NCBI GenBank assembly: GCA_015486155.1
Contig: WFSF01000029.1
Coordinates: forward strand, 1-43,234
DNA length: 43,234 nt
Reading direction: 5' to 3'
Source of the DNA: Armatimonadota bacterium
GTDB taxonomy: Bacteria > Armatimonadota > Hebobacteria > Hebobacterales > Hebobacteraceae
Under the pieces are notes generated by a model. It ran no database searches. It saw nothing but the letters and a program-made list of their open reading frames with translations, and was not told the DNA's origin. Below are positions 15,695 to 40,273 of the stretch, one piece after another; position 1 is the first letter of the stretch, and the number at the start of each line of letters is the position of its first letter. The position numbers and the translations under genes were made by a program.

Positions 15695-15973
15695 TCACCT
15701 CAGCCGCGCGGCCGCGCTCTTACTCCATACCACTTCACACTTCCATACCTGATACGCCGAGTATACGTCAGCGGCGCCACAACCCACCGCAAGGCCGATC
15801 CTGTACGTTGCGTAAGCTGCGGCGAACACGGACCGCCCCTCCAGATCCCCCCCCATGGTCGGCCGATCCCCGACATACGCATACCAATTCACCCCCTCCC
15901 TGGCCGGGTCCTTGGTGATGAAGCGGCCGAGCTCCGGCCGGTAGAAGCGGTGGCCCAGCTGCAATAGCCCGCT
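15695..15973 (-). pseudogene. displaced RHS core plus short tip
   Basis: LLQLGHRFYRPELGRFITKDPAREGVNWYAYVGDRPTMGGDLEGRSV..., the RHS repeat-associated core without an upstream RHS body. Confidence 0.82.
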
Positions 15974-15987
15974 GGAATGAAGATTCT

Positions 15988-16368
15988 TCAGGTGAGGTGC
16001 ACCAAGGACGCCTCCACCCGACCACGCTTGTCAAGGAACACGTAAAGACTCACGCCGAAGCCATATGAGTAGCGGAGCACCTCATTGTGCACGGGATGAG
16101 CGAAGGGAATACTCTTGGCATCTGGATAGACACGTTGCGGTTTTCCCAGCGCCCGCACTACATCCGCGTATGTCATGCCTGGACCAGCATAGCATTCTGC
16201 CGTGCGGAAGGCTCTCTTCTCCGCAGTTAGCCTGCCGGCAGCGATATAGATGCTTGGCACCACGAAGACAGCGGTGATCACGAGCAACAGGAGGATTGCC
16301 AGGATCATCGTGAAGATAGACCATCCGGCAGTGCGTCCCCGCCCAAGTTGGAGGGACTTATGCTTCAC
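15988..16368 (-). CDS. single-TM small protein, BamE/SmpA-like arrangement
   Basis: TM helix then GPGMTYADVVRALGKPQRVYPDAK...RYSYGFGVSLYVFLDKRGRVEASLV; GTGA start/stop overlap with next gene. Confidence 0.6.
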   Translation of the reverse strand: MKHKSLQLGRGRTAGWSIFTMILAILLLLVITAVFVVPSIYIAAGRLTAEKRAFRTAECYAGPGMTYADVVRALGKPQRVYPDAKSIPFAHPVHNEVLRYSYGFGVSLYVFLDKRGRVEASLVHLT

Positions 16369-16757
16369 CGTCTTGGCCCCCAGTACACGGCTTCTACATA
16401 GCCACTCGAATTCAGGTATAAGAGTATCACGTGGCCGAACTCGTAGTACACCATGGCTCTTTCTTCCACCGCTCTCGAGGGCAATCTATAGCGCTTGCTC
16501 ACACTTTGGGGCAACTCGTCCAGACTGGTGATCATCAAAGCGGGCGGCCCGACGTCCCTGGTCACCTCGCTCTCGTTTCTGCCGATGGCGGTATAGATGC
16601 GAAAGCGGGTCTCCCGAGCTTGGCGTACGCACCCCAAGCCAGCATAGAGGGCCATTGCCCAGCCGACTATCGCGACTGCGATCAGCCACCTCACCAGACG
16701 CGCCGAGGGGTGCTTTCGGCCGTTCACTTTGTTACCGGACTCGTCACATACTGACAT
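16365..16757 (-). CDS. single-TM small protein, probable paralogue of the neighbouring 126-aa protein
   Basis: GRNESEVTRDVGPPALMITSL...VYYEFGHVILLYLNSSGYVEAVYWGPRR. Confidence 0.6.
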   Translation of the reverse strand: MSVCDESGNKVNGRKHPSARLVRWLIAVAIVGWAMALYAGLGCVRQARETRFRIYTAIGRNESEVTRDVGPPALMITSLDELPQSVSKRYRLPSRAVEERAMVYYEFGHVILLYLNSSGYVEAVYWGPRR

Positions 16758-16786
16758 GCATGTGCGCTCCTATTCAGATCTCGACA

Positions 16787-17014
16787 CTAACACGGCCCGT
16801 CTACCCAAAGGCTCTGCATTCGTTCGCAAAACTCCTTACAAACGTCGCTGTCGTTAGATCCACTCCGGCAGTGCTCGCTGGCACATTCGAATCTCCCCAT
16901 CGCCGGCCGATCCCCGACATACGCATACCAATCCACCCCCTCCCTGGCCGGGGTCCCGGTCGGGCACCGCCCGACCTAGGGATAGAACCTCGCGCCCAAC
17001 TGCAACAGCCCGCT
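16787..17014 (-). pseudogene. displaced RHS core with in-frame TAG and Cys-rich tip
   Basis: SGLLQLGARFYP*VGRCPTGTPAREGVDWYAYVGDRPAMGRFECASEHCRSGSNDSDVCKEFCERMQSLWVDGPC. Confidence 0.78.
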
Positions 17015-17031
17015 CGGGTCGGTGATGCCTG

Positions 17032-17057
17032 TCCGCCATAGCCTTGGCGACGGCGGA
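17032..17057. repeat. small palindromic repeat encoding RRQGYGGQ when translated
   Basis: TCCGCCATAGCCTTGGCGACGGCGGA, imperfect palindrome next to the RHS core. Confidence 0.5.
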
Positions 17058-17159
17058 TACCCCTACGCGGCTCCCAACAGGCTGGCGTGTTCGCGTATTC
17101 AGGTCCTTCAAATTGCGACCAGCGACGTACTCTCGCTGCAAAATTGGATAGACGATATT

Positions 17160-17567
17160 CTATTGGTGGCCTCGTAACACCAACGGCAGCAGTAGTGAAT
17201 TGATAGCCGCTTGGTATGCTCCCACCAGGAAGACCACCGCAATCCCCCACGGCCACCACAAGCGAGCGGACGCAACACCGTTCGCACGGACACGGGCAAA
17301 CGCATACACCACAAGAGGCAGCGGAACCAGTATCAACCCCCATCGCACCATTGCGAATGAGAAGGCTACAGAGGCCGGGGCGGTTGGCATCCGTCCAATT
17401 GCTGAGCGAAACAGGAACTCGACGGAAGCTTCATAGAGAACTGCCAAAGAAGTGATAGCCAAAGCCCAACCCATGGCCGCCCTCGGTATCTTCGGTACCC
17501 TTCGCACCAGTACTGCGCCCAACACGAATGGGAGAAACTGTAATACCAATACTATCACCCAGGACAT
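17160..17567 (-). CDS. small polytopic membrane protein
   Basis: MSWVIVLVLQFLPFVLGAVLVRRVPKIPRAAMGWALAITSLAVLYEASVEFLF...; four predicted hydrophobic segments by eye. Confidence 0.6.
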   Translation of the reverse strand: MSWVIVLVLQFLPFVLGAVLVRRVPKIPRAAMGWALAITSLAVLYEASVEFLFRSAIGRMPTAPASVAFSFAMVRWGLILVPLPLVVYAFARVRANGVASARLWWPWGIAVVFLVGAYQAAINSLLLPLVLRGHQ

Positions 17568-17589
17568 AACGTGTTATCCGTACACTTTG

Positions 17590-18069
17590 TCACCAGCTCA
17601 GGTAGAACTCGGACAGAACCCCATCATTGTCGAAATAGAACGTCGCAGCCTCTTCCCCAAAAGTCCAGCTCGCCAGCCCGTGCACGACATATCCATCTTT
17701 CGTGCGCCAGCCTTTGCGCAAATGCAGGCTTTGCACGCTGCCCGCCTTGCCAGGATGTACCACCCATGCGCCAAGCAACTTGCCTGTCTCACTTTTGCTG
17801 GCCACCACCGGCTCATCCCCCTGCCGGTTGTAGCACTCGAACAGGATGTCCCCGACGCGTACGGTGGAATCAGGCGCCTTTCGCGGGGGAGCTGTGGATA
17901 CCCCGGAAAACGGTCCATCGTCTAAGAATGAGTGATAGCGCACCAAAGCACGATGTGCCATGCCCAGCCCAATGACGAGCAATAGGATGAACGCCCCCGC
18001 CACATACCGCCATCTCCGGCTCCCGCGCGGGCGCAATGTTTCCGGCTCGGCTAACCTCGTCGACGACAC
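17590..18069 (-). CDS. single-TM hypothetical protein (RHS-associated cassette)
   Basis: GSRRWRYVAGAFILLLVIGLGMAHRAL followed by globular domain. Confidence 0.55.
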   Translation of the reverse strand: MSSTRLAEPETLRPRGSRRWRYVAGAFILLLVIGLGMAHRALVRYHSFLDDGPFSGVSTAPPRKAPDSTVRVGDILFECYNRQGDEPVVASKSETGKLLGAWVVHPGKAGSVQSLHLRKGWRTKDGYVVHGLASWTFGEEAATFYFDNDGVLSEFYLSW

Positions 18070-18457
18070 CTCTGCCGACCTCTCCCCTTCTCGTGCTTCA
18101 GCCGATTCTCGTCATCGTACACCAGCGTCCGCGACCCGAAAAGAGATCCCAACACGCTGGTCAGACCGCCACTGTTGTTGTACCCCAAGCTCTCCAACTG
18201 ACTCCCCCCGGAACTCGTCCCAATCTTGGTCAGCTTGTCCGCATTGTCATAGGTGTAGTACCGCGTCCACCCAGCCACCACGTCCTGTTCCTTCGTCCGA
18301 TTCCCCACCGCATCATACCCCCACCGGTAGTCGTATTCGTAGGTGCTGGCATCCCGGTACACACCTCCCATCTGGCACCGGTACAATGCCACTCGCTCCG
18401 GTACTCCCGTGCCGTAGCCGTCGAAATTGGAGAGGAAGAGATTCCCTGTTGCCGCTC
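18051..18457 (-). pseudogene. RHS/YD-repeat fragment
   Basis: NLFLSNFDGYGTGVPERVALYRCQMGGVYRDASTYEYDYRWGYDAVGNRTKEQDVVAGWTRYYTYDNADKLTKI. Confidence 0.8.
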
Positions 18458-18459
18458 TT

Positions 18460-19548
18460 CTAAGGACTGAAGTCTCGACGTATTCTCAGGAGGACCTTAT
18501 ACCTGCCTGTTTCGCTATCGACAAGGAGCACCTCTGGGCCGCAACCTATCAACAGTCGTTTGCCGTCCGGCAGCCAGGCACAGGCGCTAGGCTTCCACTG
18601 GTTTGGTCCCACCCTCGCCAGGCGACCGTCCTTGAGGTGGTAGACCCAAAGGCCGCCGTTACCGATGCATGCCAGGGCCTCAGCCTTCGCCGCCCAGGCC
18701 GTCCTTCCAACGGAGGCCGGTATCTGCACTAAGGTCGGCTCCTCCGCCGAGTCAAGGCGCTGGATAGCCAGCCGAGTCGACGTCTCATCGTCTTCCTTCC
18801 ATATGAGCCCTGCCGCATACTTTCCATCCGGTGACACCGAATAACCACCAACTATGCCAATGGACGACGGGAAGATTGTTGACTCCTCCATAGAGGGAAC
18901 AGAGACAGCAAACAGAGTTTCATCTCTCACAATGAATGCGCGATACTGAGAGCGACGCCCAGCAGGAACCACCGCGACCAGATACGCTCGCTCTGCTATC
19001 CTGTGAGTTGTTTCCGCGTCCGTGGCGGCATACACACCAGGTGCGCCCGGCCGCATCTTCAAGGGTGCCCTGGAGACGATTGGCCTCAACTCGTACACTA
19101 CCTCCTTGTATCCAGGAGACCAGTACCCACGCTTCTCGGTGCCCATGTGAGGGACCATCCTGTCCCGGCGGCCAGTTGCGGTGTCCAACGCGAAGATGCC
19201 CGAAGCAGGCCAGTCTGAATCGGCCATCTCAACGCGGCTCACAAGCAATCGTGGTCCGTTCCTCATCCAATCTAGCGGGATATCCTGGAATCGGCGGTCC
19301 GCGTGGCTGTAAAGAATGCGTCCGCTCCGGGTATCGACAATCAGCAATGCGAATTCATAGGAATACCCCGGTTCCCCTGGACCGCTACGGATGGCGGAGA
19401 AGGCCGCCTTCGATCCATCCTCGGTCACACAAATCGCATAGACGCGCCACTCACGGGCCGGCGTGCCGCGCGGTGATCTCGGACCAGTGCAGCCTATCGC
19501 CAGGAGTACCCCGGTCAATGCCAAGGCGAGCGCTAAGAGGCGAGGCAC
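18460..19548 (-). CDS. lipoprotein with TolB/beta-propeller-like repeats
   Basis: possible GTG start VPRLLALALALTGVLLAIGCTG (lipobox) with upstream GGAGGGG; VYAICVTEDGSKAAFSAI, YSVSPDGKYAAGLIW, CAWLPDGKRLLIGCGPEVLLVDSETGR. Confidence 0.7.
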   Translation of the reverse strand: MPRLLALALALTGVLLAIGCTGPRSPRGTPAREWRVYAICVTEDGSKAAFSAIRSGPGEPGYSYEFALLIVDTRSGRILYSHADRRFQDIPLDWMRNGPRLLVSRVEMADSDWPASGIFALDTATGRRDRMVPHMGTEKRGYWSPGYKEVVYELRPIVSRAPLKMRPGAPGVYAATDAETTHRIAERAYLVAVVPAGRRSQYRAFIVRDETLFAVSVPSMEESTIFPSSIGIVGGYSVSPDGKYAAGLIWKEDDETSTRLAIQRLDSAEEPTLVQIPASVGRTAWAAKAEALACIGNGGLWVYHLKDGRLARVGPNQWKPSACAWLPDGKRLLIGCGPEVLLVDSETGRYKVLLRIRRDFSP

Positions 19549-19908
19549 TAGCCTAGCCCTCCCCTCCGGTCGGCCCACCCACTCAAACTGCCCAAGCCCC
19601 ATGTCGTCGCAACACTTATGGCAGGCGGCGGTATGTCCACGTTTTGCCTTTTTCCAGCATTTGCCAAATCTCTTCTTCTGCTTTTCTCTGTCCTCCTTTG
19701 GGAGCTTTCCCAGTTCGCACATGTCATTCGTAGCGTTGCAGGACTCCAGGCACTGCAAGTAGATGGGGAAAACCCCAGTGCATACAATGAAGCACCACCA
19801 CTTTGAGCCCTTGGGGTCGGCATGGGTGAGCGGATTATCTCCCGCATAACTATACCAATTCACCCCCTCCCTGGCAGGGTCCTTGTTGATGAAGCGGCCC
19901 AGCCAACG
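19549..19908 (-). pseudogene. displaced RHS core plus Cys-rich tip, open in frame into the downstream lipoprotein
   Basis: GRFINKDPAREGVNWYSYAGDNPLTHADPKGSKWWCFIVCTGVFPIYLQCLESCNATNDMCELGKLPKEDREKQKKRFGKCWKKAKRGHTAACHKCCDD; no start codon context, begins directly after the TGA of the upstream ORF. Confidence 0.78.
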
Positions 19909-20800: not shown

Positions 20801-21189
20801 TTGATGGTGAAGGTCTCTTCCAGTCCTTCTCGCAGACTCGCCGCCGCCTTGGGGTGGATCTGCCCAGCGGCGTCAGGCGAACATCCGATTGTCTCGATAA
20901 CACCGGTTATGTCGTGATGCGCGGGATGATGGTGGCCATGTCAGGGCAGGCCTCTGCAATGTGCCGTTGCCGGCTGTAGACTTCTCTATTTGCTGGAGCG
21001 TGACCTGCAAGTATTGATGGTATGCCGCTGGAAGACGCAGGGATGGATAGCTTGGGATGGGCACAACCTGCGGGAGTCGATCAGGTAGCCCATGGCGCAC
21101 TCGCTCCGCTCACATTGAGCGACTGCTTGCGGCAGTAGCTCTAGTGCTGTACTATACTCCAGAATTGGTCGCCGAGAGTGAAGACTAAC

Positions 21190-24100
21190 ATGAGTCGGCA
21201 TGTCGCGCCACCGAAGAGTACGGGCGGCGGCGGGTTCGTCTTTGAGGACAACGTCGCTGCATACTTCCTGTCTTTCCTCCTAGCGGGCCGGCCGCCGCTC
21301 GACCCGGCGCTCGGCGTCATCAGCCGGATTGACTTTCAGACGCGGGCGGACGGGTGGCTGCTTGACGACGTACTGCTCACGCTGGCTTCGGACAGCGGCA
21401 CGCGACAATGTGCGTTCTCGGTCAAGAGCGGCCCGCAGTTCACCGCAGGAGGAATCGTCTCAACGGATTTCGTGAACGCAGCGTGGAGGCAGTTCCTGCA
21501 CGAGGGCACAACGCGCTTCACCAGGTCCCGGGACCGCCTCGGGCTGGTCACAGTCCCGCTACCCGGCAATCTCTGTGCTGAGCTGTATGCACTGCTGGGC
21601 ATGGCTCGCGCACAGGACCCTGCAGACCTACTTGCTCGGCTGGCTGTTCCGGGTTACGCTTCCCAGATCAAGAGAGACCTCTTTGCCAGCCTGCGTTGCC
21701 CGGAGGATCTGTCTGCGAAGCATGGTCTGACAGACGCAGACACCGCAGAGTTAATGAAGCATTTGGTGGTCCTGGAAGCTGACTTCGAGAGGCAATCGTC
21801 GAGGAGCCTGCGGGAAGGGCTCGAGAACTGCCGGAGTGTACTGGTCGGCGGTTCTCTGTCGGAGGCGCAGTCGCTCTGGCAGGCCCTTCTGAGCATCGCT
21901 AGCGAGTACCGTCCCACGGCTGGCAGTCTCGACCGGCTCGAGCTCGTTGACCGTCTGCGATCGCGGTTCCGCCTGAAAGATTATCCCGAATACCAGGATG
22001 ACTGGACGCGCCTCCTCGCTCAGACGCGACAGAACCTGGACGGAATCCCGGACAGAATAGGCAGCAAGGTGTCGCTCCCCCGTGAGGAGGAACGCGAAAG
22101 CATCGAAGCTGCCCTTGCCAGGAGTAGGGTGATCGTGCTGCTGGGGCCATCTGGTTGCGGCAAGACAGTGATCGCCAAGTCCTGGGCAATGACGGCACTC
22201 GCCTCCACAAAGGTGCTATGGTGGAACGCCGCGAGCCTGGAGGTCGCCAATCCTACTGTGTTCGAGCATACCCTAGGCCTAACCCATTCCCTCCAGGACG
22301 TGCTGGCCGAGATCTCTGACCCACGCGCATACGTCGTCATTGATGGACTAGATCGCGTCTTCTCTGAAACCTCCTTCGCGAACCTTTCCGTGCTGGTTCG
22401 GGGACTTCGGCTGGAGAATCCAGCTTCCCCTTGGCGGGTTCTTCTCACGTGCCAATTTGAGGAATGGGATAGAGTCCAGCGCGAGCTTGCCCGGGCTGGC
22501 GTCTTGCCCTCAAGTTGGGAGGCCATTCAGGTAGGGAACCTGGCTCCCGAAGACCTCGATCTGGTCTGGGAAGAGTTCCCGGCCCTGCGCCGGATCGCTC
22601 TTCGCCCTCACCTGCGCGCTCTACTTGTCAAGCCCAAGCTCCTGGATCTTCTGGCGACGCGCGTCTTACCTGGTATGCCCATCGACGCCAATAACTGGGT
22701 TGGGGAATCAGACCTAATCTGTTGGTTCTGGGAGGAGGTGGTCCGCTCCCACCAGGAGGGCGAGATGCGCGCTCGCTTCCTTCAGCTCCTCGGCGAGCGC
22801 CAGGCAGATAGTCTGGAATCCGAAACGCCGAGGAGTAGCTTCCCCGTCGGAGACCTCTCGCCAGTAGACGGCCTTGTGCGCGATCGCCTCTGTGACGTAC
22901 ACGACGAACGCCTGTCATTCTACCACGACCTGTACGGTGACTGGGCGAGACAGCGCATTCTCGTGGGCCACGCCGATCGGGTCAGCGAGTACCTCGAGAA
23001 GCGTATCACATCTCCGCTCTGGCATCGCGCGCTTAGGCTCTATGGGCTGCACCTCCTCGAGCAACACGAGAATGTATCGCAGTGGCGCTCTGTCCTCAAC
23101 TCTTTGGGGGCGGCCACAGAGCGAAGGGCCGAGGACCGTAGGTCGCTGCCAGCGGAGTGGCGCCCTTTCTTCGACTCCCTCCACCCACGCACTCAGGACT
23201 TCAACACTGCCCAGGATTTGGTTCTAGAGTCGGTCATATTCGCTGCCGATCCTCTTCCTATTCTGGAGAGACTCTGGCCCGAACTCGAGGCGGAGGGTGG
23301 GGCTCTGCTCCGCCGCTTGCTGACGAGGTTCCTGCACGTAGCGACGCTGCCGAACCCGCTTATGCTGCAGATCACGCGTGTGATCGGGCAGGACTTCACC
23401 ACAGAAGCCGCGACGATGCAACGTGTTCCGTACTGGCCCTACTGGCTCCCTATGATCCAGTTTCTTCACAGCCACGCCGGGGAGGTCACTGAGATGGCTC
23501 TCCGTCAGGTTGCGGAGATCGCGGATACGTGGCTGCGCCGAGGAGATGCAAAGTGGCCGTTGCGGCGAGAGGCGGCCGAGCTGGGGATCGCTGCTGCAGA
23601 GCATATGCTGCGGCTCAAGCGAGGGCCTGGCATGGTGCTGGTGCAGGATGGGATTGATGAAGTCGCCTATCGCGCGGGGCTGGCCGGTGCCAAGGAACTG
23701 CCAGAGCGAGTAGCTGCATTCGCTCTCGATGCGAGCCAGCGAGCCACAGGAGCTGAGGAAACGCCTTCGCCGGGTGAACGCCCCCCGGTGGTCGCTAGGC
23801 GCGTCCGGGTCTCCGGCCCGCTCGGCTCCTACGAGTTCGAGATGCCCCCTCCATGGCCAGATGGCCCATCCGAGCGAGTGGACGAGGCATTCCGCAAGAC
23901 CTGCCTGGACACGGATACGCTCCACCCGCTGATCGTGTCCAATCCCACTGTGGCGCGTGAGGTCCTTCTGGCACTCATGATTCAGGAGCCGAGGGAGCCC
24001 GACAAGAGCAACAGCCCCGCGTTGCAGGAGGATTTGAAAGTTGAGGCGATACACACGTGGTTCCCTCCGCTCTATTTGCGCGGACCCTTTCTGTTTTTCT

Positions 24101-26517
24101 TGTAGAGCCAGGCCACCGAAGGGCTGGACCTGATTGTGCGGCTAGTCAACTTCGCCACCGAAAGGTGGGCTGACCTGCGGCGCGCGGGATATAGGCAACC
24201 CCCTTCTATAACAGTGCGATTCCCTGAAGGTGATCGCGAGTACCTTGGAGACGGGGCTGTGTGTTTCTGGTACCGCGATGTTGGAAGGGCACCGCAGCTT
24301 GTCGTTTCTGCCTTGATGGCTCTGGAGAAGTGGCTCTATATGCAAGTGGACGAGAAGCGGCCGATCGGAGACACCGTGGACCTGCTCCTCCGGAACAGTA
24401 ACTCGCTCGCTATCGTGGGGCTTCTCATCGCGGTGGGCAAGAAGGAACCTGCGCTGTTTCTGGATGAGCTTCTGCCGCTGCTCGCGGTGCCCGAGTTTTA
24501 CCGGTGGGAGATTCGCCATCAGATCGCGAACGAAGGCCATCAGATGATCGGGTGGACGATGCCCCGAAAACACCCTTGGCTTGAGATCGCACAGGACTGG
24601 CATGCCCTTCATCATCGGAGGATAGACCTCACCAATGTGGCACTGTACCTGTTTCTGAACGTTCCGCAGACAAGAGAGTTCTTTGGTCGGGCGCGAGCAG
24701 AATGGCAGTCACAGATCCAGTCTGCGGATGCAGACGATGATTCAGTAGCGCATCTAGAGAAGATGGTAGCTCTCTTCGATCTCGTGAACTGGAGGCAGAG
24801 AAAGGACGCTGAGCGCGGCACGGTGTGGGAATTCACGGAACCTGCCGATCTTCGGGAGAAGAACGAGTTGGTGCGGCAACAGATCGAAAAGCGCCAGCGG
24901 TTCCTCGTCCTGCCATCCCACTGCCGTCAGATATTGGATGCAGGTCAGCCGCTCTCTGCCGATGAGGCCGAGAAGCTGTGGACTATGGCACAAGAGGTTC
25001 TCGAAGCGGGACCCCCGGATGAGGCCGACGCAGGTGTAGTCAACATCGAAGACGGGCTCTGCGGAGTGGCCGCCGTGTTGCTCAAGCTGCAACGTGACTG
25101 GCTGAGGCAACATCCGGACCGCGCGGACTGGTGCGTGAACCAGATGGTGAACACAGTCCGGAACCCTCCGGCACGCCACGAAATCGACAGCGAGGTCAGT
25201 CGTTCTGATCTGCACTGGGACGGCTTCTGCGCCGAGGTCATGCCGTTGCTATGGGCCGAGGAGCCCCAGTCACCAGCTTTGTGCGAATGCGTCGCCCTGC
25301 TGACGATGAACTATCACTACAAGACGGTAGCAATCCTTTTCGCGCGAGCTGGGAGCGTCCGGACCCAATTGGGCGAGGAGTTCACGCGGCTGCAGCACTT
25401 CATGCTTCGCTGGGCCGCCCAGAGGCGGGAGCAGACCCGCTTCCGATACCCGGATGAACCCGAGAAACGGAAGGCGGAACTCGAGGCCTGGGTTCGAAAA
25501 GAGGTGCCAGGTTTCGTCGCCGGGTCGCTCTCAGCCGAACTGCCGTCTTGGCTGGACGTCATCGGCGAGGAGCCCGAGATGGAGCCGGCCCCAATCGACG
25601 CTTTGCTAGGGAAAAGACCTAGAGCAACAGGGCCTCGGCTTGATCTAGAGGTGATCCGGGCTGCGTACGGGTGGCTTCCGCCGCTGGGACAAGCGCAGAC
25701 TGAACAGGAGCGTGCCGAATGGCTCGACTTCTGGCGGGAATCCCTTGCATGTAGCCTCAGAATGCTGGCAGAGGACGGCGAGATCAGTGGCACGCCATAT
25801 CCGTGGGATCGCTGGGTCTACTCGGGGATTGCCCAGAGCATAGCGGAATGCCGACCAGATGAGCATCCGGACCAGCTCTGGCGGCCGATCCTCGACTTGG
25901 GTGCTCCAGGCCATCATTGGATCGAAGGCTTCCTCCGGGCGTGGTTTCTCTTTGGCCTTGCGGCCGAGCCAAACACAGAGGGTTTCGTGCAGCAGTGGCG
26001 CGCGATGGCGGAGTTTGCCTTCTCATCTCCAACGTGGGCCCTCGAATCGACGAGACGTCACTGGGACCTGGACGAAATGTGGTGCCACCTCATGGGCCTT
26101 GACCCGCTCGTCTCACACGTATGGACGGCCGAGCGGCAGCCTGTAGTGATGGAGATGAGCGATATGTACCGGCGGTGGGCCGAGCTGAGTCTCGTACGGC
26201 CTCGTTCAGCCGTTGCCTTTGCGCGTTTTCTACAGCAACCCGCCGCACAGGTCATACTCTTCGATGGTTTGACCTGGCTCGAAAAGGTAGCCGCGGAGGC
26301 GGACGAGTGGTTCTGGAGAGAGCACAACCTCAAAGAGACCATGGCAGCGCTGTTGGATAGCTGCTGGTGCTCGCGCCGAGAGGACCTGCGCCGCCACAAA
26401 AAGGACCTCACGACATTCAACAGCCTACTTAGGATGCTTGCCGACCACCAGAACCCGATCGCGCTCGAACTCCTTGATCGCGTTCGCGGAGAGCTGTCAT
26501 CCGGAGCAGACCGCTAG
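21190..26517 (+). pseudogene. giant STAND-like NTPase with probable N-terminal PD-(D/E)xK domain, split by in-frame TAG at 24103-24105
   Basis: Two ORFs of the same frame (21178..24105 and 24136..26517). Walker A GPSGCGKT, Walker B AYVVIDGLDR, winged-helix-like LSFYHDLYGDWARQ; N-terminus FEDNVAAYFLSFLLAG...DDVLLTLASDSGTRQCAFSVKSG; reading through gives WFPPLYLRGPFLFFL*SQATEGLDLIVRLVNFATERW. Confidence 0.72.
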
Positions 26518-28217
26518 CGGAAAAGAATCGGCTCGAAGATCTCTGTCAGCCTCGCCATCGCATTCTTCAGGACCGGATGGTCCAATGGGTTGAGTGGGAG
26601 CTCTACCCTGCGCCGAAAGTTGGTAAAGCTCTCACTCTCGAGTTTCCAACGTTGGTCTAACAGTGCCTCGAGGACGCTCTCACCCGAATGGACCGCCGCC
26701 AGTAGGCCCTCGCATTCGTCCATAAGGAGTACGCGGACGGGCAAGATGCCCGCTCCCTCCAGTATTCCCTGTGACGCAAGCTCAGACCGGAAGAGCTCCT
26801 GGGTAGGCTGGAACAGCGGAAGATTCTGCCACACTACAATCACGGGTAAGAAGCGCCGGAACGAACTTGGTCCGCGTTTTCCCAACATGAACCGGCCCGC
26901 CTTGAAATCGCTGATGACTGCGTCAAGCTGCTTGGCCTTCGCGATCAGGGACTTTCCCAGGTCTTCACGGATCTTCTCCGAGTCTCCCGCTACTAACGAT
27001 TGGCGCGTGAATCCCGAATGGGTCACCTCAACCAGTGCAAGCACCTGACCACAATCAATGAGAATATCTGAGGGAAGACCGCCATTGTACGGTAGATCTT
27101 CATCGAGCCACAGGCGCTGAAACTGACCAGAGTGTGGAAAGAGGGGTAGGAATAGCGAATCGACGTATCGCTCCAGAATCTCTCCCCAGAATGTCGTGAA
27201 TTGGTTGCGCGGCTGGCCGGTCTTTTCGCGCCAGGCGTTCCACAAAGCGTGATACGTACCAAGAGTGAAGCGCTCGACGAGGAGCTGTGGTATCGCAGGA
27301 CAGTAGTGACCGTCGTCGAGGCTGATGAGCGGCCGTTCTTGGAGAGGCAAGGGGTCTGGTACCGCGGGAGCCTTCGCGTCCAGTTTCTCATACCGCGCTC
27401 TCAGCCACGCCAGGTCGCACGACATCTGCTCAACCACTTGATGAAGCATCTCGCGATTGACTCCTGGAGGGAAAAACGCGTCGGGGTTGATCGCGGCCCA
27501 CTTTCGCGGTCAGTTGACAGGCTGATCAACAATGCTCGGGAACGCAAGAGCACATCCGACCGCGTAGAATGTGCGCCAATCACATCCTATGTGACTTTCC
27601 AGCTCTTTGGTAATGTCAATCCAATTCGGTGAGGACTTCAGCTTCTCCCTCTGTGCCGTGCTGTCAAGCAACTCAAAGTGGCGAGCTAACAGTAGCCCTG
27701 GAGGCTCCCGTGATGTGAGATAGGATGCCGTTGATACGAGCGAGAGCGCGGAGTCCCCCGTTATGTCCGTCATGCCCGGCAATAGTCGTCGCGCTTCATC
27801 TTCGCCAATAGCCTCCGATATCATCATCAGCCACTGCCAGAAGAGCTCTCGGGCCGCAGGATCATTGAAAGATGCCTCAGTGTCAGCAGAGGCATGGAAG
27901 GCTAGCTCACGCCACGCAGCCACAAGCTGCACTGGGTGCGCAAGAACAGTTGTTGGAGGCCGTCTCAGTCGCTTCATCAGCGTCGCCCGGACTTCAGATG
28001 GCTCGACAAGGGACGCAATATCGAGCTGGATCTCAACCAATCCTCTGGGCGATGCTGCAAACTGGGCTACAAGAGATAAGTAGAAGCAGGCGTCACTCAG
28101 CGGCAATCGTGAGGTAGTTGCCGCGACTTCCTCCCAAGTCGCTGGGCCGACGTCAATACCAACATCGCGTCGTGTCACCCAAGTAGCGATGTTCGTCATT
28201 GGCGAGTACTCAGCCAT
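26514..28217 (-). pseudogene. unknown defence-island protein with nuclease-like C-terminal domain, split by in-frame TGA at 27510-27512
   Basis: ORFs 27510..28316 and 26514..27449 share one frame; junction FPSIVDQPVN*PRKWAAINPDAFFPPGVNREMLHQ; C-terminal LPSDILIDCGQVLALVEVTHSGF resembles a PD-(D/E)xK core. Confidence 0.65.
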
Positions 28218-28911
28218 TTGTCTCTCGGTTTCCTGCCGAGCGTGTTCCGATGGAAACAGACCGCCCCGGACGACGCGCGTCTCGGAGAGTTGGGCCAGAG
28301 TTGCAGACAACTGCAACTCTGTCTAGACGTAGCTCGTTTCGGTCTACTACTCTCTTCCCCCACCTCTCCACCTCTCGCGCGAAGGCTTCCGTCTTACTTT
28401 CCGGGGCGGCGTATGGGATGAGGATGCGGTCGGCGAGGGCGGCGACGAAGCGGTTACGATATTGAGCGTTTTCGGCGGTGATGCGGTGGTGCTTGTCCTC
28501 GAAGGGCGAGAGGATGAGGAGGCGGCCGGCATTGAGCGGGGTCCTGAGTTCAGAAGGTATTCGACGCCAGATGCTCCGGGCGGGACAGATCACGATGGGT
28601 TGCGCGCCGCGAAGCAGGAGTCGCAGGCACTCCTGCTCCATTGGTGAATGGAAGCCGCTGATGACGGTGACGCCCGCGTCCCGGAGCGAACACATGAGGT
28701 CATAGGTCTGAAGAATCACCTTGCCGGGACACTTGACGGAGCAGAGCAGACCCAGCAGCGGATCATCGAGAACCCCAAGATTGCCCAGTGCGTAGATGCG
28801 CTCCGGCGCGCGGCTCCCGAGCAGCTTCATGGCGGCCCCAGGATATCGTGGGTGGCCACGCCCAATGGCGATTACCCCGCAGGATTCACTTCCTTTGATC
28901 GGTTCCTCCAA
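28210..28911 (-). CDS. DprA/Smf-like Rossmann-fold protein
   Basis: VIAIGRGHPRYP...LCSVKCPGKVILQTYDLMCSLRDAGVTVISGFHSPMEQECLRLLLRGAQPIVICPAR; TTG start likely; 8-bp ATGGCTGA overlap with the downstream gene. Confidence 0.7.
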   Translation of the reverse strand: MEEPIKGSESCGVIAIGRGHPRYPGAAMKLLGSRAPERIYALGNLGVLDDPLLGLLCSVKCPGKVILQTYDLMCSLRDAGVTVISGFHSPMEQECLRLLLRGAQPIVICPARSIWRRIPSELRTPLNAGRLLILSPFEDKHHRITAENAQYRNRFVAALADRILIPYAAPESKTEAFAREVERWGKRVVDRNELRLDRVAVVCNSGPTLRDARRPGRSVSIGTRSAGNRETNG

Positions 28912-29040
28912 CTCCTGGTGTCCCCTTGAGTCTGCATCTCACGCTGCAAGAGCCCGCTCGCCCCCATCCTCGCGGTACCACAGCGAATTGTCATACGCCG
29001 TCACGATGGCGGGACTTCACTGCTCGTTGTCGGCCCTGGG

Positions 29041-29499
29041 CTATGGCGCAGGCAGAAGGGAAGGGTATTTCGCGCGCAACCATTCCAGCACTTCCGCCTT
29101 CAGCTCTCTGGCAAGATCAAGCATCTCGTCGGCATCTTGCTCGGACACGACGCCCACGCGCTCGTATCCTGCTATGTGCCGCTTCCTTCGGAACCTGTTG
29201 AAGACATCAACCTTTTCCACCGACCAGCCGATGGTGAGCGTCAACGATTCGATGACCCAGCGGTGGTGTGCATCGCGCGCCGCTCGATAACCGGCGGCCG
29301 CGAGCGCGGCGGTGGCACACCGGAGTGCTGCATTGTAGGCGATAGCCAGTCGCCAGTCGGGATCGAGTCCTGGAATCTGGCATTGCGCCAGGTCGCGATC
29401 AGCGACAGAGAGCAGGTCTTTGATCTCACGTTTGCTAGGGGTGTGTTGGTGCAGGCGCCCCTGCTCGAGCCAGTCGCTCAAGGTCATCAGCATCTCCAA
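29041..29499 (-). CDS. HEPN-domain protein (toxin-side partner of MNT)
   Basis: LSDWLEQGRLHQHTPSKREIKDLLSVADRDLAQCQIPGLDPDWRLAIAYNAALRCATAALAAAGYR; adjacent to MNT gene. Confidence 0.8.
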   Translation of the reverse strand: MEMLMTLSDWLEQGRLHQHTPSKREIKDLLSVADRDLAQCQIPGLDPDWRLAIAYNAALRCATAALAAAGYRAARDAHHRWVIESLTLTIGWSVEKVDVFNRFRRKRHIAGYERVGVVSEQDADEMLDLARELKAEVLEWLRAKYPSLLPAP

Positions 29500-30073
29500 C
29501 TACGAACAGCTTCGGTTCCGCCATGACGGAAGTCAGGAAGTGGTGTCCCTCTGCGAGCTTCTGGCGGAACTCCGCTTCGGGATAGAGTGTCGGGTTCACC
29601 TCACGCGCAAGCGTCTCCTCAGCCTGGCGCAACGGTGCCACGAGGTCTCGCATGGCCACGTTGCCGACGACCATAAGATCCACGTCGCTCTCGGAGGTAT
29701 GATCCATCCGGGCGACCGACCCATAGACGAAAGCCAACTTGAGGCCGTGCAGGCCAGCGAGATGGGTGCGGAGCACATCCACCACGCCGGCGGTCTTCAG
29801 CACCATGGACGTCAGCTCGCCCAGCACCGGGCAAGCCGGGTTAGGGCTGTAGTAGACTCGGTTCCCCTCACGCTGGGCGCGCAACACTCCCAGATCGGCA
29901 AGGGCCCGGAGAGCGCGCTGGGCCTGAACCAGCCTCAGTCCGGCCAATTGGGCAATCTGTCGCTGGTAGAGACGCGCCTCAGGGCGACCCAGCAACACAG
30001 ACAGCACGGCCGCTCTTTGCCGTCCCAATAGTCCCTCTAGAAGGCGACTGCGCAACACGCTCATCATGACCAC
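29435..30073 (-). CDS. winged-HTH plus MNT-type nucleotidyltransferase (antitoxin side)
   Basis: LKLAFVYGSVARMDHTSESDVDLMVVG (GSxxRxxxxxxSDxDLxV) with N-terminal HTH. Confidence 0.88.
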   Translation of the reverse strand: MVMMSVLRSRLLEGLLGRQRAAVLSVLLGRPEARLYQRQIAQLAGLRLVQAQRALRALADLGVLRAQREGNRVYYSPNPACPVLGELTSMVLKTAGVVDVLRTHLAGLHGLKLAFVYGSVARMDHTSESDVDLMVVGNVAMRDLVAPLRQAEETLAREVNPTLYPEAEFRQKLAEGHHFLTSVMAEPKLFVVGDADDLERLARAGAPAPTHP

Positions 30074-30089
30074 GTTCCGTAGTCATTCA

Positions 30090-30104
30090 ACCACATTTTG
30101 TGGT
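30090..30104. promoter_or_regulatory. putative operator upstream of the MNT/HEPN pair
   Basis: perfect inverted repeat ACCACA-TTT-TGTGGT, with a further GACCAC half site at the start codon. Confidence 0.45.
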
Positions 30105-30290
30105 CGGAATGCAAGGCCAAACTGCGGTGGCACGCGGATCATGCGCCAATGGGACGGCCGCAGGGCGGGAGCAACGGTCTTTTGGATGCTTGTAACTCTT
30201 CCATCGTCATGCAACAACATTCCCCAGTCCCCGGTGTTCTTCCCCTGATCATCACCATCATGGCTTATGCCATGCTCATCGTCATCATCA

Positions 30291-30581
30291 TCACGCCCCT
30301 CCCGCCCCGCGCACGATGACGCGCCTCTCGCTAACCAGCTGGTCGAACACCTCTGCCGACCACTCGTCAACGTCCGGGAAGTGGCCGATGTGGAAGCCCT
30401 TGCGGCGCAAGCGTCGGCGAATACGCGCTCGTTCTCCTCCGTGCTTCCCCGACATCCCATCGAGCAGTGCCCTGATCTCATCGGCCTGCTCCGGCGTAAG
30501 TCGGGGCGGGCCTGCGCTGGACTCACCACTATGGGCCCCATCGTTCCGAAGGCGCCACAAACGATGAATCCACTTACCCAT
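30291..30581 (-). CDS. 96-aa accessory protein of the helicase/methyltransferase operon
   Basis: start MGKWIHRLWRLRNDGAHSGESS at 30581 overlaps the methyltransferase stop by 8 bp (coupling). Confidence 0.65.
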   Translation of the reverse strand: MGKWIHRLWRLRNDGAHSGESSAGPPRLTPEQADEIRALLDGMSGKHGGERARIRRRLRRKGFHIGHFPDVDEWSAEVFDQLVSERRVIVRGAGGA

Positions 30582-33500
30582 CGTCGCTACTCCTTCCGCC
30601 GGTCTCCCGCCCCATCCGGTACTTGATGTCGTAGTTGATGATGAAATCCAGTTCCTCGTCCGTGAAGCCGTAGTGCTTTGCCAGAACCTGGTCAATCTGG
30701 TCAATGATGGGCTTACACGCTGTGGAGTCAACTGTGTCTATGAGAAGGCCACTCTTTCGCCATTGAGTCATGTGTCTACGCATACATTCATCCAGCCTGC
30801 GCGATAGTTGACCGAGCCTGCGAAGCGAAGCGCTGTCGAACGACGCTATATCCAAGGGGAAGCTGTAGACATCTGACGCGTTGATGTGTCGTCCATCCGA
30901 TGAGGCACAGAAAAAAACATAGTAGGTGGAACTGTTTAGTATAGCATGGAGAGCCGCGGCCGTACGCTCATCCTGCAAGGTCAACTGTTTGACTTCCCCC
31001 CTCACGCGTTCCGCCCCCCCATTTAGTGGCCTTGCTTTTGGGGCGCGAGTGAAGAATTGACAGAAGTAGCCTGGCACGCGTACCCAGAAGATACGGTGTG
31101 GCCCGGCACGTGTCAGCCAAGTTCCTAGTGTCCGCGAGGCATCTATCTTCTTAAGCACCTGGGATGCCTCTGGCGTTCCAATCTTCGCGACACGTCGCAG
31201 AGAGTGCCGAGAATCTCGCTGCGACGGCTGATATCGAATTATGGAGAATAGCGCACGTCTTTCGCCATTCCTTGCATTCCAGCGATAGTACTGGGTCGTG
31301 AACAACGTCCCGTTCTTGTCACGCGGTCGGCTCAGTAGAATCGTGAGTCGGTTCTGCGCACCCGCGAATAGCTGGCCTGGTCTGTTCGAGAAATGCGCCA
31401 GCCATAGTGCCCGTTGAGAATCTGCAGTCACGTCACGCGCTGCCTGGATGCCAGCCGATGATGTGAACGATATAGGGATGATCATCCCCACACAGCCCTG
31501 AGCACGTCTGAGCCCTTCGGATCGTTCAAGCATGAGGCAGAACAAATTGCCACATAACTCCGTCTTGTATCCCCGTACAGTATAGTCATGCTTGACCTTT
31601 GCGTATTCCACATACGGCGGATTCCCGATGACCACGTCGAATCCGCCCCGGCTCATGATCCCGTAGAACTCGACGAACCAGTGGAAGGGTTTGTGGGAGG
31701 TGAGCCAAGCTTCGTAGGCCCGTTTATTGCCGGGGGCGACGCCGTACTCGACAGCGAGGTACCTGTTCAGTTCGCCATCGAGTTCCTCCAGGCGGCGCCG
31801 CAGCTCCGCCTTGTCCTCCGCGGTGACCTCTCCCCCGATCTCCGTCTGCTGTTGGCGGAAGCGGAAGAACAGGCTCTCCAGGTCCTCGGCCTTCTCCTGG
31901 ATCCGCCCCATCACATCGTCGAAGTCCAGCTTGGACCTGATGGCGGTCTGCACATCCTGGTAGGAGGCGAACCCCACCAGCGAGTTGCCGGCCCGGATGT
32001 TGAAGTCGATGTCGGGCAGCGGTTCGATCTTCTCCGCGCTGTCCACCTGCGCGACCAGCTTGAGGAAGAGGCGAAGCTTGCAAATCTCGACCGCCTCCTC
32101 CATGATGTCCACCCCGAAGAGGTTGTTGAGGATGATGGTCTTGAGGACGAAGTAGCGGCGGTTCGGGTGCTGCTCGACCCGCTCCAGGATTTGCCGGAAG
32201 TCCGAGAACTTCCGCGGATGGCGCTTCCCGCCCGACCGCTCCAGGTCGCCGAGGAATGCCTCCATGCGCTCCAGGCAGGCCTCATAGAGGGGCTCCAGGA
32301 TGTTGAGGGCCGCGAAAAGGAAGGCGCCGGAGCCGGAGGCCGGGTCGAGGACGCTTATCTCCTGGAGCGCCAGCCAGAAAGCCCGCAACAGCTCCGGCCC
32401 CTCGCAGTTCTCGATCACATCCTGGATGAACTGGCGGATGTCGAGGTTGTAGGTGATGAGATCGTTGATGTCCCGGATCTCACCCGCAGCGAGTTTGGCA
32501 CGCAGCTCCAGGCAGCGGTTGCGGCGCGCGACGTATTCCCGCCAGGTCTCGGTGGGGAGCGCGAGGTTCTCGCCGTCGGGTCCGGGGATGTGAGCCTCTC
32601 CGAGGTTGTAGCGGCGGTCGAACATGCGCTTCTTGGGGTCGCGCATGCCGGCCTGCACGAAGTCGGGCAGGGCCGACTCCGGGATGACTTCGCCGTCTTC
32701 GCCTATCACGCCGCTGCGGACCGCCGGGTAGATGTAGCGATCGGGATCCTCCTGCAGCAGCCGCCACACGGACTGCTCTCCCTCGAAGGCGATGCGGCAC
32801 TTGCGCCGCGCGGTGTCCAGCAGATGGGGAATCACCGTGTTCTGGCTGATGTAGCCGGTGATGTCCTCCTTGGTATAGTAGGCGCCCATCTGCTTCTGGT
32901 TGATGTACTTCTCGAAGATGTAGCCGAGTACGTCGGGGTTGATCTCGTTGTCCCGGCGGAGAGGGCGCTCGTCGAGGTGCCACTGGTAGGCGTCGAAGAA
33001 GTCGAAGAGCTTCTCGAAGGCGGCGTCCGCGATCTGGATCTTCTCCCCGTACCGCGATTCGATTTGGTGGCGCATGAAGATGCCGCCGTTGAGGTAGGGC
33101 ACCTCCCCGAGGAGCCGACGGGCATGAGGGGAGCGTTCCTCCGGCATCTTGGCAAAACCCTCGAAGAACAGAGGACAGAGAAACTCGCGGTAGAAGCGGC
33201 TCTTGCCCCTGCGCTTACTGTCGGCGAGCTTGTTCCGCAGGTAGTCACGATCACCGTTCAGGAAGCCGCGCTTCTGGATGAAGTAGATGAACATCAGGCG
33301 GTTGAGCATCACCGAGACATACCAGCGCTGCATGTCCTCGTCGGGGATTCCCTTGAGGAACTTCAGGAATGCGTCGTGCTCCGCCTTGAACCGGTCGTAG
33401 AAGCGTTTTGTGACCCGGTCCACGTCGAAGGCCGCCCTGACGCGGCCGGTCACTCCGACCAGCGTGAGGTCCGCTTCCTCGTCCAAGGTGAAGGCGATGG

Positions 33501-33897
33501 CGTCCAGCTTCTGAAGGAGCGACTCGCCGTCCTGGCTGATATGATAGCGGTGCTCACGGCACTGACGCGGCCGCCCGGCCTCGCGCTTGACCCATTGCCA
33601 GACCTGCCTTTCTCTTTCTGCGTCCACGTAGACAATCAGGTGTTCGTGGACCGACTTGGCGATCTGGGCCTCGATCTTGCGTCGTGTGGCATGGTCGGGC
33701 ATGTCAGGGCCAGGGGCGGGACACTCGAAGGCGACCATGCCGCGCTTCTGGGCGATGGCTGAAAGTGTGTACATCTGCCCGTTGAGGGATACTTCGATGG
33801 TCTGGGTGTGCCGATCCCAGCCCAGCTCCTCGACGAACAGGCGTCGCAGGTCGCACTCTCGGAGGAGCTGCTGGCAGCGTTGGCGATCAATCGGCAT
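30574..33897 (-). CDS. Eco57I-type N6-adenine DNA methyltransferase, type II/defence-associated
   Basis: SAM motif LDPASGSGAFLFAAL, catalytic motif VVIGNPPYVEYAK, long N-terminal helical domain, C-terminal TaqI-like region. Confidence 0.93.
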   Translation of the reverse strand: MPIDRQRCQQLLRECDLRRLFVEELGWDRHTQTIEVSLNGQMYTLSAIAQKRGMVAFECPAPGPDMPDHATRRKIEAQIAKSVHEHLIVYVDAERERQVWQWVKREAGRPRQCREHRYHISQDGESLLQKLDAIAFTLDEEADLTLVGVTGRVRAAFDVDRVTKRFYDRFKAEHDAFLKFLKGIPDEDMQRWYVSVMLNRLMFIYFIQKRGFLNGDRDYLRNKLADSKRRGKSRFYREFLCPLFFEGFAKMPEERSPHARRLLGEVPYLNGGIFMRHQIESRYGEKIQIADAAFEKLFDFFDAYQWHLDERPLRRDNEINPDVLGYIFEKYINQKQMGAYYTKEDITGYISQNTVIPHLLDTARRKCRIAFEGEQSVWRLLQEDPDRYIYPAVRSGVIGEDGEVIPESALPDFVQAGMRDPKKRMFDRRYNLGEAHIPGPDGENLALPTETWREYVARRNRCLELRAKLAAGEIRDINDLITYNLDIRQFIQDVIENCEGPELLRAFWLALQEISVLDPASGSGAFLFAALNILEPLYEACLERMEAFLGDLERSGGKRHPRKFSDFRQILERVEQHPNRRYFVLKTIILNNLFGVDIMEEAVEICKLRLFLKLVAQVDSAEKIEPLPDIDFNIRAGNSLVGFASYQDVQTAIRSKLDFDDVMGRIQEKAEDLESLFFRFRQQQTEIGGEVTAEDKAELRRRLEELDGELNRYLAVEYGVAPGNKRAYEAWLTSHKPFHWFVEFYGIMSRGGFDVVIGNPPYVEYAKVKHDYTVRGYKTELCGNLFCLMLERSEGLRRAQGCVGMIIPISFTSSAGIQAARDVTADSQRALWLAHFSNRPGQLFAGAQNRLTILLSRPRDKNGTLFTTQYYRWNARNGERRALFSIIRYQPSQRDSRHSLRRVAKIGTPEASQVLKKIDASRTLGTWLTRAGPHRIFWVRVPGYFCQFFTRAPKARPLNGGAERVRGEVKQLTLQDERTAAALHAILNSSTYYVFFCASSDGRHINASDVYSFPLDIASFDSASLRRLGQLSRRLDECMRRHMTQWRKSGLLIDTVDSTACKPIIDQIDQVLAKHYGFTDEELDFIINYDIKYRMGRETGGRSSDDG

Positions 33898-33900
33898 CTG

Positions 33901-36900
33901 CTACTTGCCCTCCGGAACGAGTCCCAGGGAACAGATGATCCGGGGCTCGCGGGATTCCTTCTCTTCCTGTATGCGGCAAAGCCGATCCTGGTCGCGCAGG
34001 CTGATGACCAGTTCGGCCAGCGCCTGGTCGGACACCCCCGCCCGCAACTGGCGGTTCAGAGTGTCAACCGCGGACTGCTGGAGCGGGTACCTGTAGATGT
34101 CCTCGATCGCCTTCAGCAACTCTTGCGACTCGAACAACGTCCCCTTGACCTGCTCGGCGTAACTCTTCAATCGCTGGTAGGTCCGGAACCTCGCCCCGGA
34201 GGGGCGGCCGAGCTGGCCTCCGACCGAGTGCTCCTCCTCCGCCACCAGCTCCGCTGCCCGGCGGACCAGGTCGTGGTGGTTATCGCTCCGGGGCACCGGA
34301 GGCGTGTCGGGCTTGCACTCCACCGCCCGGAGAATCTCGATCGGCGACTCGGTTACAGTTCCGCCCTGCTCGTCGAGCCACACCAGGGCATCGTTGTCCT
34401 GATCCGTGCGCAGGTAGGCGATGACTCCCGCAGGAGCCTCCTCTGTGGGCCGGTGCGCGCGGGCGGAATAGACCACTCGCGGCAACTCCGAAACTATCTT
34501 CTCCAGCTTCGGGTCGGCCGCGATGGCGTTGTGCCAGATCTGGTAGGCTTCAGAGCCAAGGTCCACTTCGGTATCGTCGGGGTCATCGGCTATGCCGGCC
34601 TTCTCGTTGTAGAGATCGAGCACGAGCCGCTTGTCCGCTTCGTCCTCGAAGAACGCCTCATCCGTCCCGACCACCTCGCGGTTCTCGCGGAGGCGCCGGC
34701 GAAGCCGCCCGCGCAGGCCGATGATTCTCTCGATCCCTTCGGCAGGGAGGAACGAGTAGCAAAGAATCTGCTCCGCCTTCTGGCCGATCCGATCAACGCG
34801 GCCCACACGCTGGGTCAGACGGATCAGCGCCCAGGGAAGATCGTAGTTGACGACGATGTGGCAGTCGTGGAGGTTGAGCCCCTCGCTGAGGATGTCGGTG
34901 GAGATGAGCACGCGCAGCTCATCGCCAGGCCTGGGCACCTCGTTGGCCTCCGGACTGAATCTCCTGGCGATTCCCACCGGGTCCTCAGTCTGGCCGGTCA
35001 CGCCGGCGAGCTGCTCGATGCCCCGCTGCCGCAGCTGCTCGGTCAGATAGCGGACCGTGTCGGCGAACTGTGTGAAGACGATGACTTTGTCCTGCGCGTG
35101 GTCCTTTGTGAGGAGATCCTCGAGGGCGTTGAGCTTCGCGTCGAGGCCCGGATCCCAGTCTCCGCACTCCTGCAGAATGCCCAGCAACGCGGCCGCGTCC
35201 CCTCGGAGGTCCGCGGCGAGCTGCGCCACGAACAGATCCGAGCGAAGCCATCGGAACCGACGCCTGTACTGGCCCGCGTACTGAGTCTGGTAGATCTCGG
35301 CCGCGCGTCGCCGGAAGTCCTCCTCGGTGCGGAGAGCGACGACTTCAGCTTCCTCGTCGCCATCCTCCTCTACATCATCAAACAAGGCCTTCGTGGCCAG
35401 GTCCTCGTCCTCGGTGCCCGGATCCAGCAGCCCGGCGTCCTGGGTGCCGATGGGGATGTCCAGCCCGTGCTCCACAGCGTGCAGGAAGATGTAGTTCCGG
35501 AGGATGTGGCGTTCGACAGACTGGAGAAAGGCCTGACCGCTGCTTTCGAGACGCTTGAACAGGTTGGTGCGACAGAATCCCATCAGCCTCCGGCCAGCGC
35601 GGGAAAGGTCCCGGAGAATCTTGTCCTCGGCCGGGGTCGGCGGGGCGTGCGGCGAAGGTTCAATGTAGTTGGCGAGGCCGTACCGGGGCAGTTCCAGAGC
35701 GTTGATGGTGTCAACGACCTCCGGTGCGTACAGCCTCGCATATTGGTCGTTGGGGTCGGCATCGTTGATCGTGAAGGGAACCTTCCTGGGCTCACGCTCG
35801 GGGAAGTAGGCCCGTCCTCCGTCCTCGAGGGCAAGGTACTTGCGGCCGGTTTCCGGGTCGGTGAGTGCGTAGTTGTCCTTGATGAAGGTGCGCGAGCGGC
35901 GCACCATGTAGAGGCGCATCAGGTTGCGCCAGTCGTCGGCGTAGGGGCTGTGTTCGAAGGCGGCGAGAGAGCGCATCGGACACTGGTGCAGCCGCAGGAA
36001 TTCGGTCTCGCCCAATTCTCTCAGCAGTCGTTCCGGGCGTATGCCCAGGTCTTGATCCTCGGGGATGAAAAGGCGAAGCTGGTTTGAGAGGTCTACATAT
36101 GTCTTGTTGTACGGGGTGGCGGACAAGAGAATGACTCGGCTTTCGTTCCTCGCGATGTAGTCCTGAATCGCGCGGAAGCGCCTACCCTCGCGATTGCGCA
36201 GGTTGTGGCTCTCATCTATGATGACGATCCGGTAGCGTCGCAGCTCCGGCAGCTCGTTCAGCACCCGGGAAATCGAGAGCACCTCCCCCCGCAGCCGGTA
36301 CTGATGGACATAGTCCTTCCACATCGAGACTAGGTTCTTGGGACAGATGATTAGGGTCTCGAGTCCGTGGTCGTCCTCCAGAATCTTCGCCACCGCGGTG
36401 GCCATCAGCGTCTTGCCCAACCCGACCACATCGCCAATGAATACCCCGCCCCGCCTGTTGACGTGGTGGGCGGCAATCTTCACCGCGGCGACCTGGAAGC
36501 GAAAGAGCCGGTTGCCGAACTCGCGCGGGATGCGAAACTCCGCCAGCCCGGCCCTCGCCTCGCGCGACAGGTGGTAGGCGATCTTCAGGTAGATGTGGTA
36601 TGGCGGAATCAGCTCCTCGCGCGCCCAACTCTCGTCAATGATGGCGGCCAGCTCGTCGGAGATGTCCACACACCAACGGTCGTTCCAGCGATCCTCGAAC
36701 CATCGCGCAAGCTTCTCACAGGCATCGCCGTCCATGACGTCTACATTGAGCTCGCCCTGCTTCGCGAGTCCCGCCAGGGTCAGGTTGCTGCTGCCGAGGT
36801 AGGCGACGGCGGGATTGATGGGATCGGGCCGGAAGAGCAGATACAGCTTCGCGTGAAGCGGATGGCGCAGGAACAGCTTGACCACCACCTTGCGGGCCTT

Positions 36901-38659: not shown

Positions 38660-38716
38660 GCAGTGGCCTGGCGGTGTGGTCAGGCCGTAGAGGACGAGGG
38701 CCTGCGGCCCCCCGTC

Positions 38717-39952: not shown

Positions 39953-39956
39953 CTAC

Positions 39957-39991
39957 CTTGCAAATTTGCATTCAGAATGCGATTTTGCAAG
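39957..39991. promoter_or_regulatory. 35-bp near-perfect palindrome at the 5' end of the DUF4143 gene
   Basis: CTTGCAAATTTGCATTC-A-GAATGCGATTTTGCAAG, 15/17 arm positions complementary, 5 bp from ATG. Confidence 0.6.
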
Positions 39992-40262: not shown

Positions 40263-40273
40263 ACGCCGATCTA

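What the first reader, a model, noticed from the sequence alone, without database searches (positions are those of the whole stretch)
21190..26517. Giant STAND-type NTPase with N-terminal nuclease-like domain, split by one in-frame amber codon
ORFs 21178..24105 and 24136..26517 lie in the same frame and are separated only by TAG at 24103. Read-through gives a smooth LYLRGPFLFFL[*]SQATEGLDLIVRLVNFATERW, so this looks like one protein of about 1,775 residues. It has a P-loop (GPSGCGKT), Walker B (VVIDGLDR), a winged-helix-like FYHDLYGDW, a long repeat-like C-terminal sensor region, and an N-terminal DD...FSVKSG pattern reminiscent of PD-(D/E)xK effectors. That architecture (effector-NTPase-sensor) is typical of Avs/STAND antiphage proteins, but I do not recognise a named family. 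Whether it is functional, recently inactivated, or expressed as two chains is open.
Basis: partly seen in the sequence, partly recalled or inferred. Interest (0 to 1): 0.8.

Follow-up and report, generated by a model that had tools for sequence, protein, structure and literature searches.

The report
Avs4-like phage sensor with nonsense codon
This is a very large bacterial phage-sensing protein of the Avs4 type, normally one unbroken chain in its relatives, that carries a single stop codon here and has most likely been recently switched off; two cousins in the same phylum carry the same kind of stop nearby, which is curious but not yet proof of a designed switch.

Summary
In detail: 21190..26514 (+) is one reading frame of 1,775 codons broken only by TAG at 24103-24105 (residue 972). 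It is one gene. Homologues in Symploca, Paraburkholderia, Geminocystis, Azospirillum, Rhizobium and others are single uninterrupted ORFs of about 1,580-1,810 aa, and alignments run straight across the TAG. A profile of the family matches Avs4 (PDB 8dgf) at E = 5e-30 in three colinear stretches, one spanning the TAG; a same-phylum cousin read through its own TAG matches the Avs4 model over positions 166-1569 (492 bits). So it is an Avs4-like STAND NTPase (effector, NTPase with HD motif, helical sensor). Its N-terminal domain is not recognisably Avs4's: a PD-(D/E)xK-like module shared with candidate families PDC-M54A and DUF626_VIII. Best reading: a recent nonsense lesion in a costly immune gene. 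The family is often broken (5 of 21 plasmid copies). Unexpectedly, three of eight same-phylum members carry one clean TAG, at different columns within 77 residues. Each site aligns with a residue one transition from amber in relatives; no PylS, no amber suppressor tRNA and no conserved RNA structure was found. Programmed readthrough is unlikely but not excluded. New member of a known kind.

The parts
21190..26514 (+). whole gene read through the TAG, 1,775 codons (an in-frame GTG at 21178 is an alternative start)
   Evidence: end-to-end homologues
21190..21990 (+). N-terminal effector, about residues 1-267: PD-(D/E)xK-like motif E19, D59-D60, SVK79, then a helical linker
   Evidence: 15-member alignment; PDC-M54A / DUF626_VIII hits; fold not confirmed
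22066..22600 (+). STAND NTPase core, residues ~293-470: P-loop GPSGCGKT, Walker B VVIDGLDR
   Evidence: nSTAND_NTPase5 E 1.1e-6, NACHT E 3e-4; Avs4
22918..22944 (+). HD motif FYHDLYGDW at the end of the winged-helix region (H579 invariant in 10 homologues)
23077..26514 (+). helical-repeat sensor, residues ~630-1775
   Evidence: Avs4 colinear stretches; Foldseek best matches 8dgf chains B and A, E 6e-13, over 1,109 columns (low-confidence model)
24103..24105 (+). in-frame TAG at residue 972, inside the most conserved sensor segment (PFLFFL*SQ...NFATERW)
   Evidence: Gln at the aligned place in Avs4 (Q796), Geminocystis and Leptolyngbya
24136..26517 (+). downstream ORF that could only be made by reinitiation (GTG); no domain boundary here in homologues

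Best explanation
The locus is an Avs4-like STAND immune gene that carries one recent nonsense mutation. Intact, it would work as Avs4 does: the long helical C-terminal region recognises a conserved phage protein (for Avs4 the portal), the NTPase oligomerises, and the clustered N-terminal PD-(D/E)xK-like domains cut DNA and stop the infected cell. With TAG at residue 972 the chain ends inside the sensor, so the copy in this assembly most likely makes a 971-residue product without a working sensor and is inactive. Shown: one gene, Avs4-like core, single stop, intact homologues, frequent breakage of the family. Inferred: nuclease activity, phage trigger, oligomerisation, inactivity of the truncated product.
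For: Colinear Avs4 similarity through the TAG. Uninterrupted homologues as stand-alone genes. The TAG lies inside a conserved sensor segment, not at a domain boundary, and the aligned residue in relatives is one transition from amber; the same holds for the stops in G248 (near-invariant Trp1048), G043 (column 1039, Gln in G119) and Rhizobium NXC24 (TGA, Trp in nearest relatives). The family is broken in many hosts by different lesions: frameshifts in Pseudomonas koreensis, Shinella and G363, an insertion sequence in Aromatoleum, TGA in NXC24, a fragment in Cupriavidus, a 19-bp duplication in G053. No PylS over cut-off, no amber suppressor tRNA found by the pattern used, no unusual RNA structure after the stop. 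The island downstream holds other defence genes.
Against: No second lesion in 1,775 codons, and catalytic motifs are intact, so decay is not advanced. Two other same-phylum members also carry exactly one TAG within 77 residues of this one. Breakage in this family in the phylum (4 of 8) exceeds that of type IIG restriction enzymes in the same phylum (about 2 of 31; P 0.01). Reads are not available, so a population polymorphism or consensus error at 24103 is not excluded.
Confidence: 0.78

Rival explanations
1. Programmed or leaky amber readthrough: the TAG is kept so that cells make mostly a sensor-less short form and a little full-length receptor, limiting the cost of the immune receptor.
For: Three same-phylum members each carry one clean TAG within a 77-residue stretch; P 0.007 for three of three, 0.025 for three of four; clean TAG among lesions in the phylum 3/4 against 0/6 elsewhere, P 0.03. 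No other lesion in these genes.
Against: Tests are post hoc, and clustering is P 0.06 among five stops and 0.36 among nine lesions. The five-stop count includes G053, whose stop is due to a duplication. The three stops lie at different columns, contexts differ (TAG-AGC, TAG-CTT, TAG-TCT), no shared RNA structure, no PylS, no suppressor tRNA found; the gene also ends with TAG; other members in the phylum have none.
Confidence: 0.06
2. Two-chain receptor: the upstream ORF makes effector-NTPase and the downstream ORF (GTG 24136) makes the sensor by translational coupling, and the chains assemble.
For: Downstream ORF of 793 aa is open; GAAGGG lies 12 nt before the GTG.
Against: No homologue is split at this place by design; the break falls inside a conserved segment; in-frame starts near a stop are expected by chance.
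Confidence: 0.05
3. Assembly or consensus error, or a minority allele: the living population mostly has a sense codon at 24103.
For: The genome is a fragmented, 87% complete assembly of 267 contigs; one substitution separates TAG from the residue seen in relatives.
Against: Consensus substitution errors are rare, and two other assemblies show the same kind of stop.
Confidence: 0.11

Closest known systems
Avs4 (AVAST type 4, PDB 8dgf)
   Same: NTPase with HD motif and long helical sensor, colinear over three stretches (family profile E 4.7e-30); a same-phylum cousin matches positions 166-1569 of the Avs4 model at 492 bits.
   Different: N-terminal domain does not align with that of Avs4; far below the NCBIfam equivalog cut-off (about 25 against 1500 bits); frame interrupted.
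PDC-M54A (PADLOC phage defence candidate)
   Same: N-terminal domain plus NTPase, residues 15-388 against 20-395 of 1621, E 1.6e-11; cousin G248 E 1e-26.
   Different: The sensor scores with Avs4, not with PDC-M54A; no partner gene seen next to this locus.
DUF626_VIII (PADLOC model, retron type VIII by its name)
   Same: Seven of 15 family N-terminal domains match it, best E 1e-21.
   Different: The window's own domain does not pass the threshold by itself; no reverse transcriptase was recognised among the ORFs scanned in the window.
Symploca SIO3C6 EAD10-STAND (L007)
   Same: NTPase and sensor about 46-50% identical end to end, uninterrupted.
   Different: Carries Effector-associated domain 10 in place of the nuclease-like domain, next to a caspase-like gene: effector swap on the same sensor.

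Membership tests
Avs4 | STAND NTPase with P-loop, Walker B and HD motif | tested here: met
Avs4 | C-terminal helical sensor colinear with Avs4 | tested here: met
Avs4 | Full-length score above the curated equivalog cut-off | tested here: not met
   24 and 25.8 bits for the halves against 1500; joined protein 50.8 bits to the PADLOC model
Avs4 | Same N-terminal nuclease as Avs4 | tested here: not met
   alignment to 8dgf starts at chain residue 206; no N-terminal stretch matched
Avs4 | Recognition of phage portal protein | not testable with these tools
   needs co-expression or phage challenge
Avs4 | Intact reading frame | tested here: not met
   TAG at 24103
PD-(D/E)xK nuclease | Conserved acidic residues followed by (E/Q/S)xK | tested here: met
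   D60 invariant, D59 and K79 at least 90% in 15 sequences
PD-(D/E)xK nuclease | alpha-beta-beta-beta-alpha-beta core fold | tested here: inconclusive
   element order fits, but mean pLDDT is 37
PDC-M54A | Similarity over the whole 1621-position model | tested here: inconclusive
   only about the first 400 positions match
Pyrrolysine or other amber recoding | PylS in the genome | tested here: not met
   none over cut-off; G000 is only 87% complete
Pyrrolysine or other amber recoding | tRNA with CUA anticodon | tested here: inconclusive
   the pattern found only tRNA-Arg(TCT); not a full tRNA census
Programmed readthrough | Stop at a conserved position with conserved context | tested here: not met

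The most novel reading that the evidence does not exclude
In this phylum, Avs4-like receptors carry a tolerated amber codon early in the sensor, a translational rheostat that keeps most receptor molecules sensor-less and makes a little full-length immune receptor by readthrough.
Probability: 0.05. Interest if true: 0.8.

Novelty: new member of a known kind. Interest (0 to 1): 0.36.

Why it matters
It extends Avs4-like receptors to an uncultured phylum and to cyanobacteria, and shows the same NTPase-sensor joined to different effectors (PD-(D/E)xK-like domain here, EAD10 beside a caspase-like gene in Symploca). It also suggests that giant phage receptors are inactivated often in nature (about a quarter of plasmid copies), as expected if they are costly. 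The run of three single amber codons in one phylum can be tested directly with reads or a reporter.

Tried and rejected
Viral-contig searches with four proteins and one alignment found no relatives. AlphaFold on two-row alignments gave weak models (pLDDT 37 and 47), so fold matches are supporting only; the N-part search gave nothing under 0.001. Pfam recognises nothing in the N-terminal domain. Candidate CTA tRNAs were ordinary tRNA-Arg(TCT). The TAG in G053 comes from a 19-bp duplication and was not counted as a clean amber. The literature search gave little on Avs4 beyond a 2026 Avs5 paper (PMC12931631); papers on the PADLOC candidate were absent.

Full report
Observation. The two ORFs are real and in one frame, separated by TAG at 24103-24105; a second TAG ends the gene at 26515. 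From ATG 21190 the gene has 1,775 codons. G+C at third positions is alike on both sides of the stop (0.71 and 0.69). The gene stands alone: upstream lie divergent RHS-like fragments, downstream a convergent defence island. The window is the whole of contig 29 of an 87% complete, 2.58-Mb, 267-contig genome.

One gene. The Symploca homologue (L007) is one 1,578-aa ORF aligned across the TAG (GPFLFFLRNQ against GPFLFFL*SQ), 46-50% identical. In plasmids the read-through protein matches 25 records, two over at least 80% of its length; 16 copies are uninterrupted ORFs.

Identity. The separate halves hit Avs4 at colinear positions; joined, PADLOC Avs4 gives E 1.1e-14 over 943-1118. The 10-member family profile finds Avs4 8dgf first among all PDB chains at E 4.7e-30, in stretches 286-755, 924-1241 and 1608-1740. 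The same-phylum cousin G043, read through its own TAG, matches Avs4 positions 166-1569 at 492 bits. A low-confidence model of residues 630-1775 still has Avs4 as its two best fold matches by about nine orders of magnitude in E-value, although the TM-score is low (0.26). The protein is Avs4-like, but not Avs4 by the curated cut-off.

Effector. The N-terminal ~267 residues carry E19, D59-D60 and SVK79. Among 15 relatives D60 is invariant and D59 and K79 nearly so, the latter mostly within QVKR. PADLOC links the domain to PDC-M54A and DUF626_VIII. This is a PD-(D/E)xK-like motif; the fold is unproven. Symploca has EAD10 at this place and a neighbouring caspase-domain gene, so the effector is swapped while the sensor is kept.

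Mechanism. Avs1-Avs4 are reported to cut phage and host DNA after recognising terminase or portal proteins (PMC12931631). By homology the intact form of this gene would do the same; its trigger and its nuclease activity are inferred, not shown.

The stop. In the phylum (291 genomes held) eight genomes hold a family member. G260, G126 (assembled on two contigs), G119 and G001 are open; G000, G248 and G043 each have one in-frame TAG; G053 is broken by a 19-bp duplication. Other long STAND proteins found in the phylum are open, including a second one in this genome. The three ambers map to window residues 972, 1048 and 1039; at each place relatives carry Gln or Trp, one transition from amber. The TGA in Rhizobium NXC24 maps to a Trp of its nearest relatives. 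That is what independent point nonsense mutations look like. Elsewhere the family is broken by frameshift, insertion sequence, TGA or truncation (5 of 21 plasmid copies, 1 of 4 cyanobacterial loci). As a control, about 31 type IIG restriction genes in the same phylum have one internal stop and one apparent frameshift; the difference to 4 of 8 has P 0.01.

Is the amber run a signal? Clustering P ranges from 0.007 (three ambers alone) to 0.36 (all nine lesions), depending on what is counted; TAG-only lesions in the phylum against elsewhere give P 0.03. All of this is post hoc. Columns and contexts differ, there is no common RNA structure, no PylS, and the suppressor-tRNA scan found only ordinary tRNA-Arg. 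I therefore prefer recurrent recent inactivation and leave programmed readthrough at about 5%.

Noticed in passing
window 26514-41113: Defence island next to the gene: DprA-like PsyrA match (28210-28911), nucleotidyltransferase PDC-M05A (29435-30073), type IIG restriction-methylase (30574-33897, 1037 bits), HKD+Snf2 helicase (33901-37329), AAA_14/DUF4143 ATPase (38717-39952) and AbiEi (40274-41113).
   Followed up: partly
window 15695-19863: Several short minus-strand ORFs carry RHS-repeat-like pieces (RFITKDPAREGVNWYAYVGDRP, NWYSYAGDNPLTHADPKGS), suggesting a broken or cassette-type RHS locus.
   Followed up: no
L110 4976-9556 (G000:C157): A second, uninterrupted 1,527-aa STAND protein (nSTAND1, HEAT repeats, PDC-M54A-like) in the same genome, beside large ORFs.
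   Followed up: partly
L007 3089-12635: Symploca cluster: caspase-like gene, NACHT-type genes and the EAD10-STAND homologue, with similar GKYNVNI-type motifs in several of them, suggesting effectors recruited through shared adaptor domains.
   Followed up: partly
L041 8445-13529 and L042 13705-18870: Two more Avs4-like genes of the phylum with exactly one in-frame TAG each, early in the sensor (window-equivalent residues 1048 and 1039).
   Followed up: yes
L041 11388-11413: A strong hairpin (CUUUCUCGCC..GGCGAGGGAG) directly follows the TAG in G248; not shared by the other two.
   Followed up: partly
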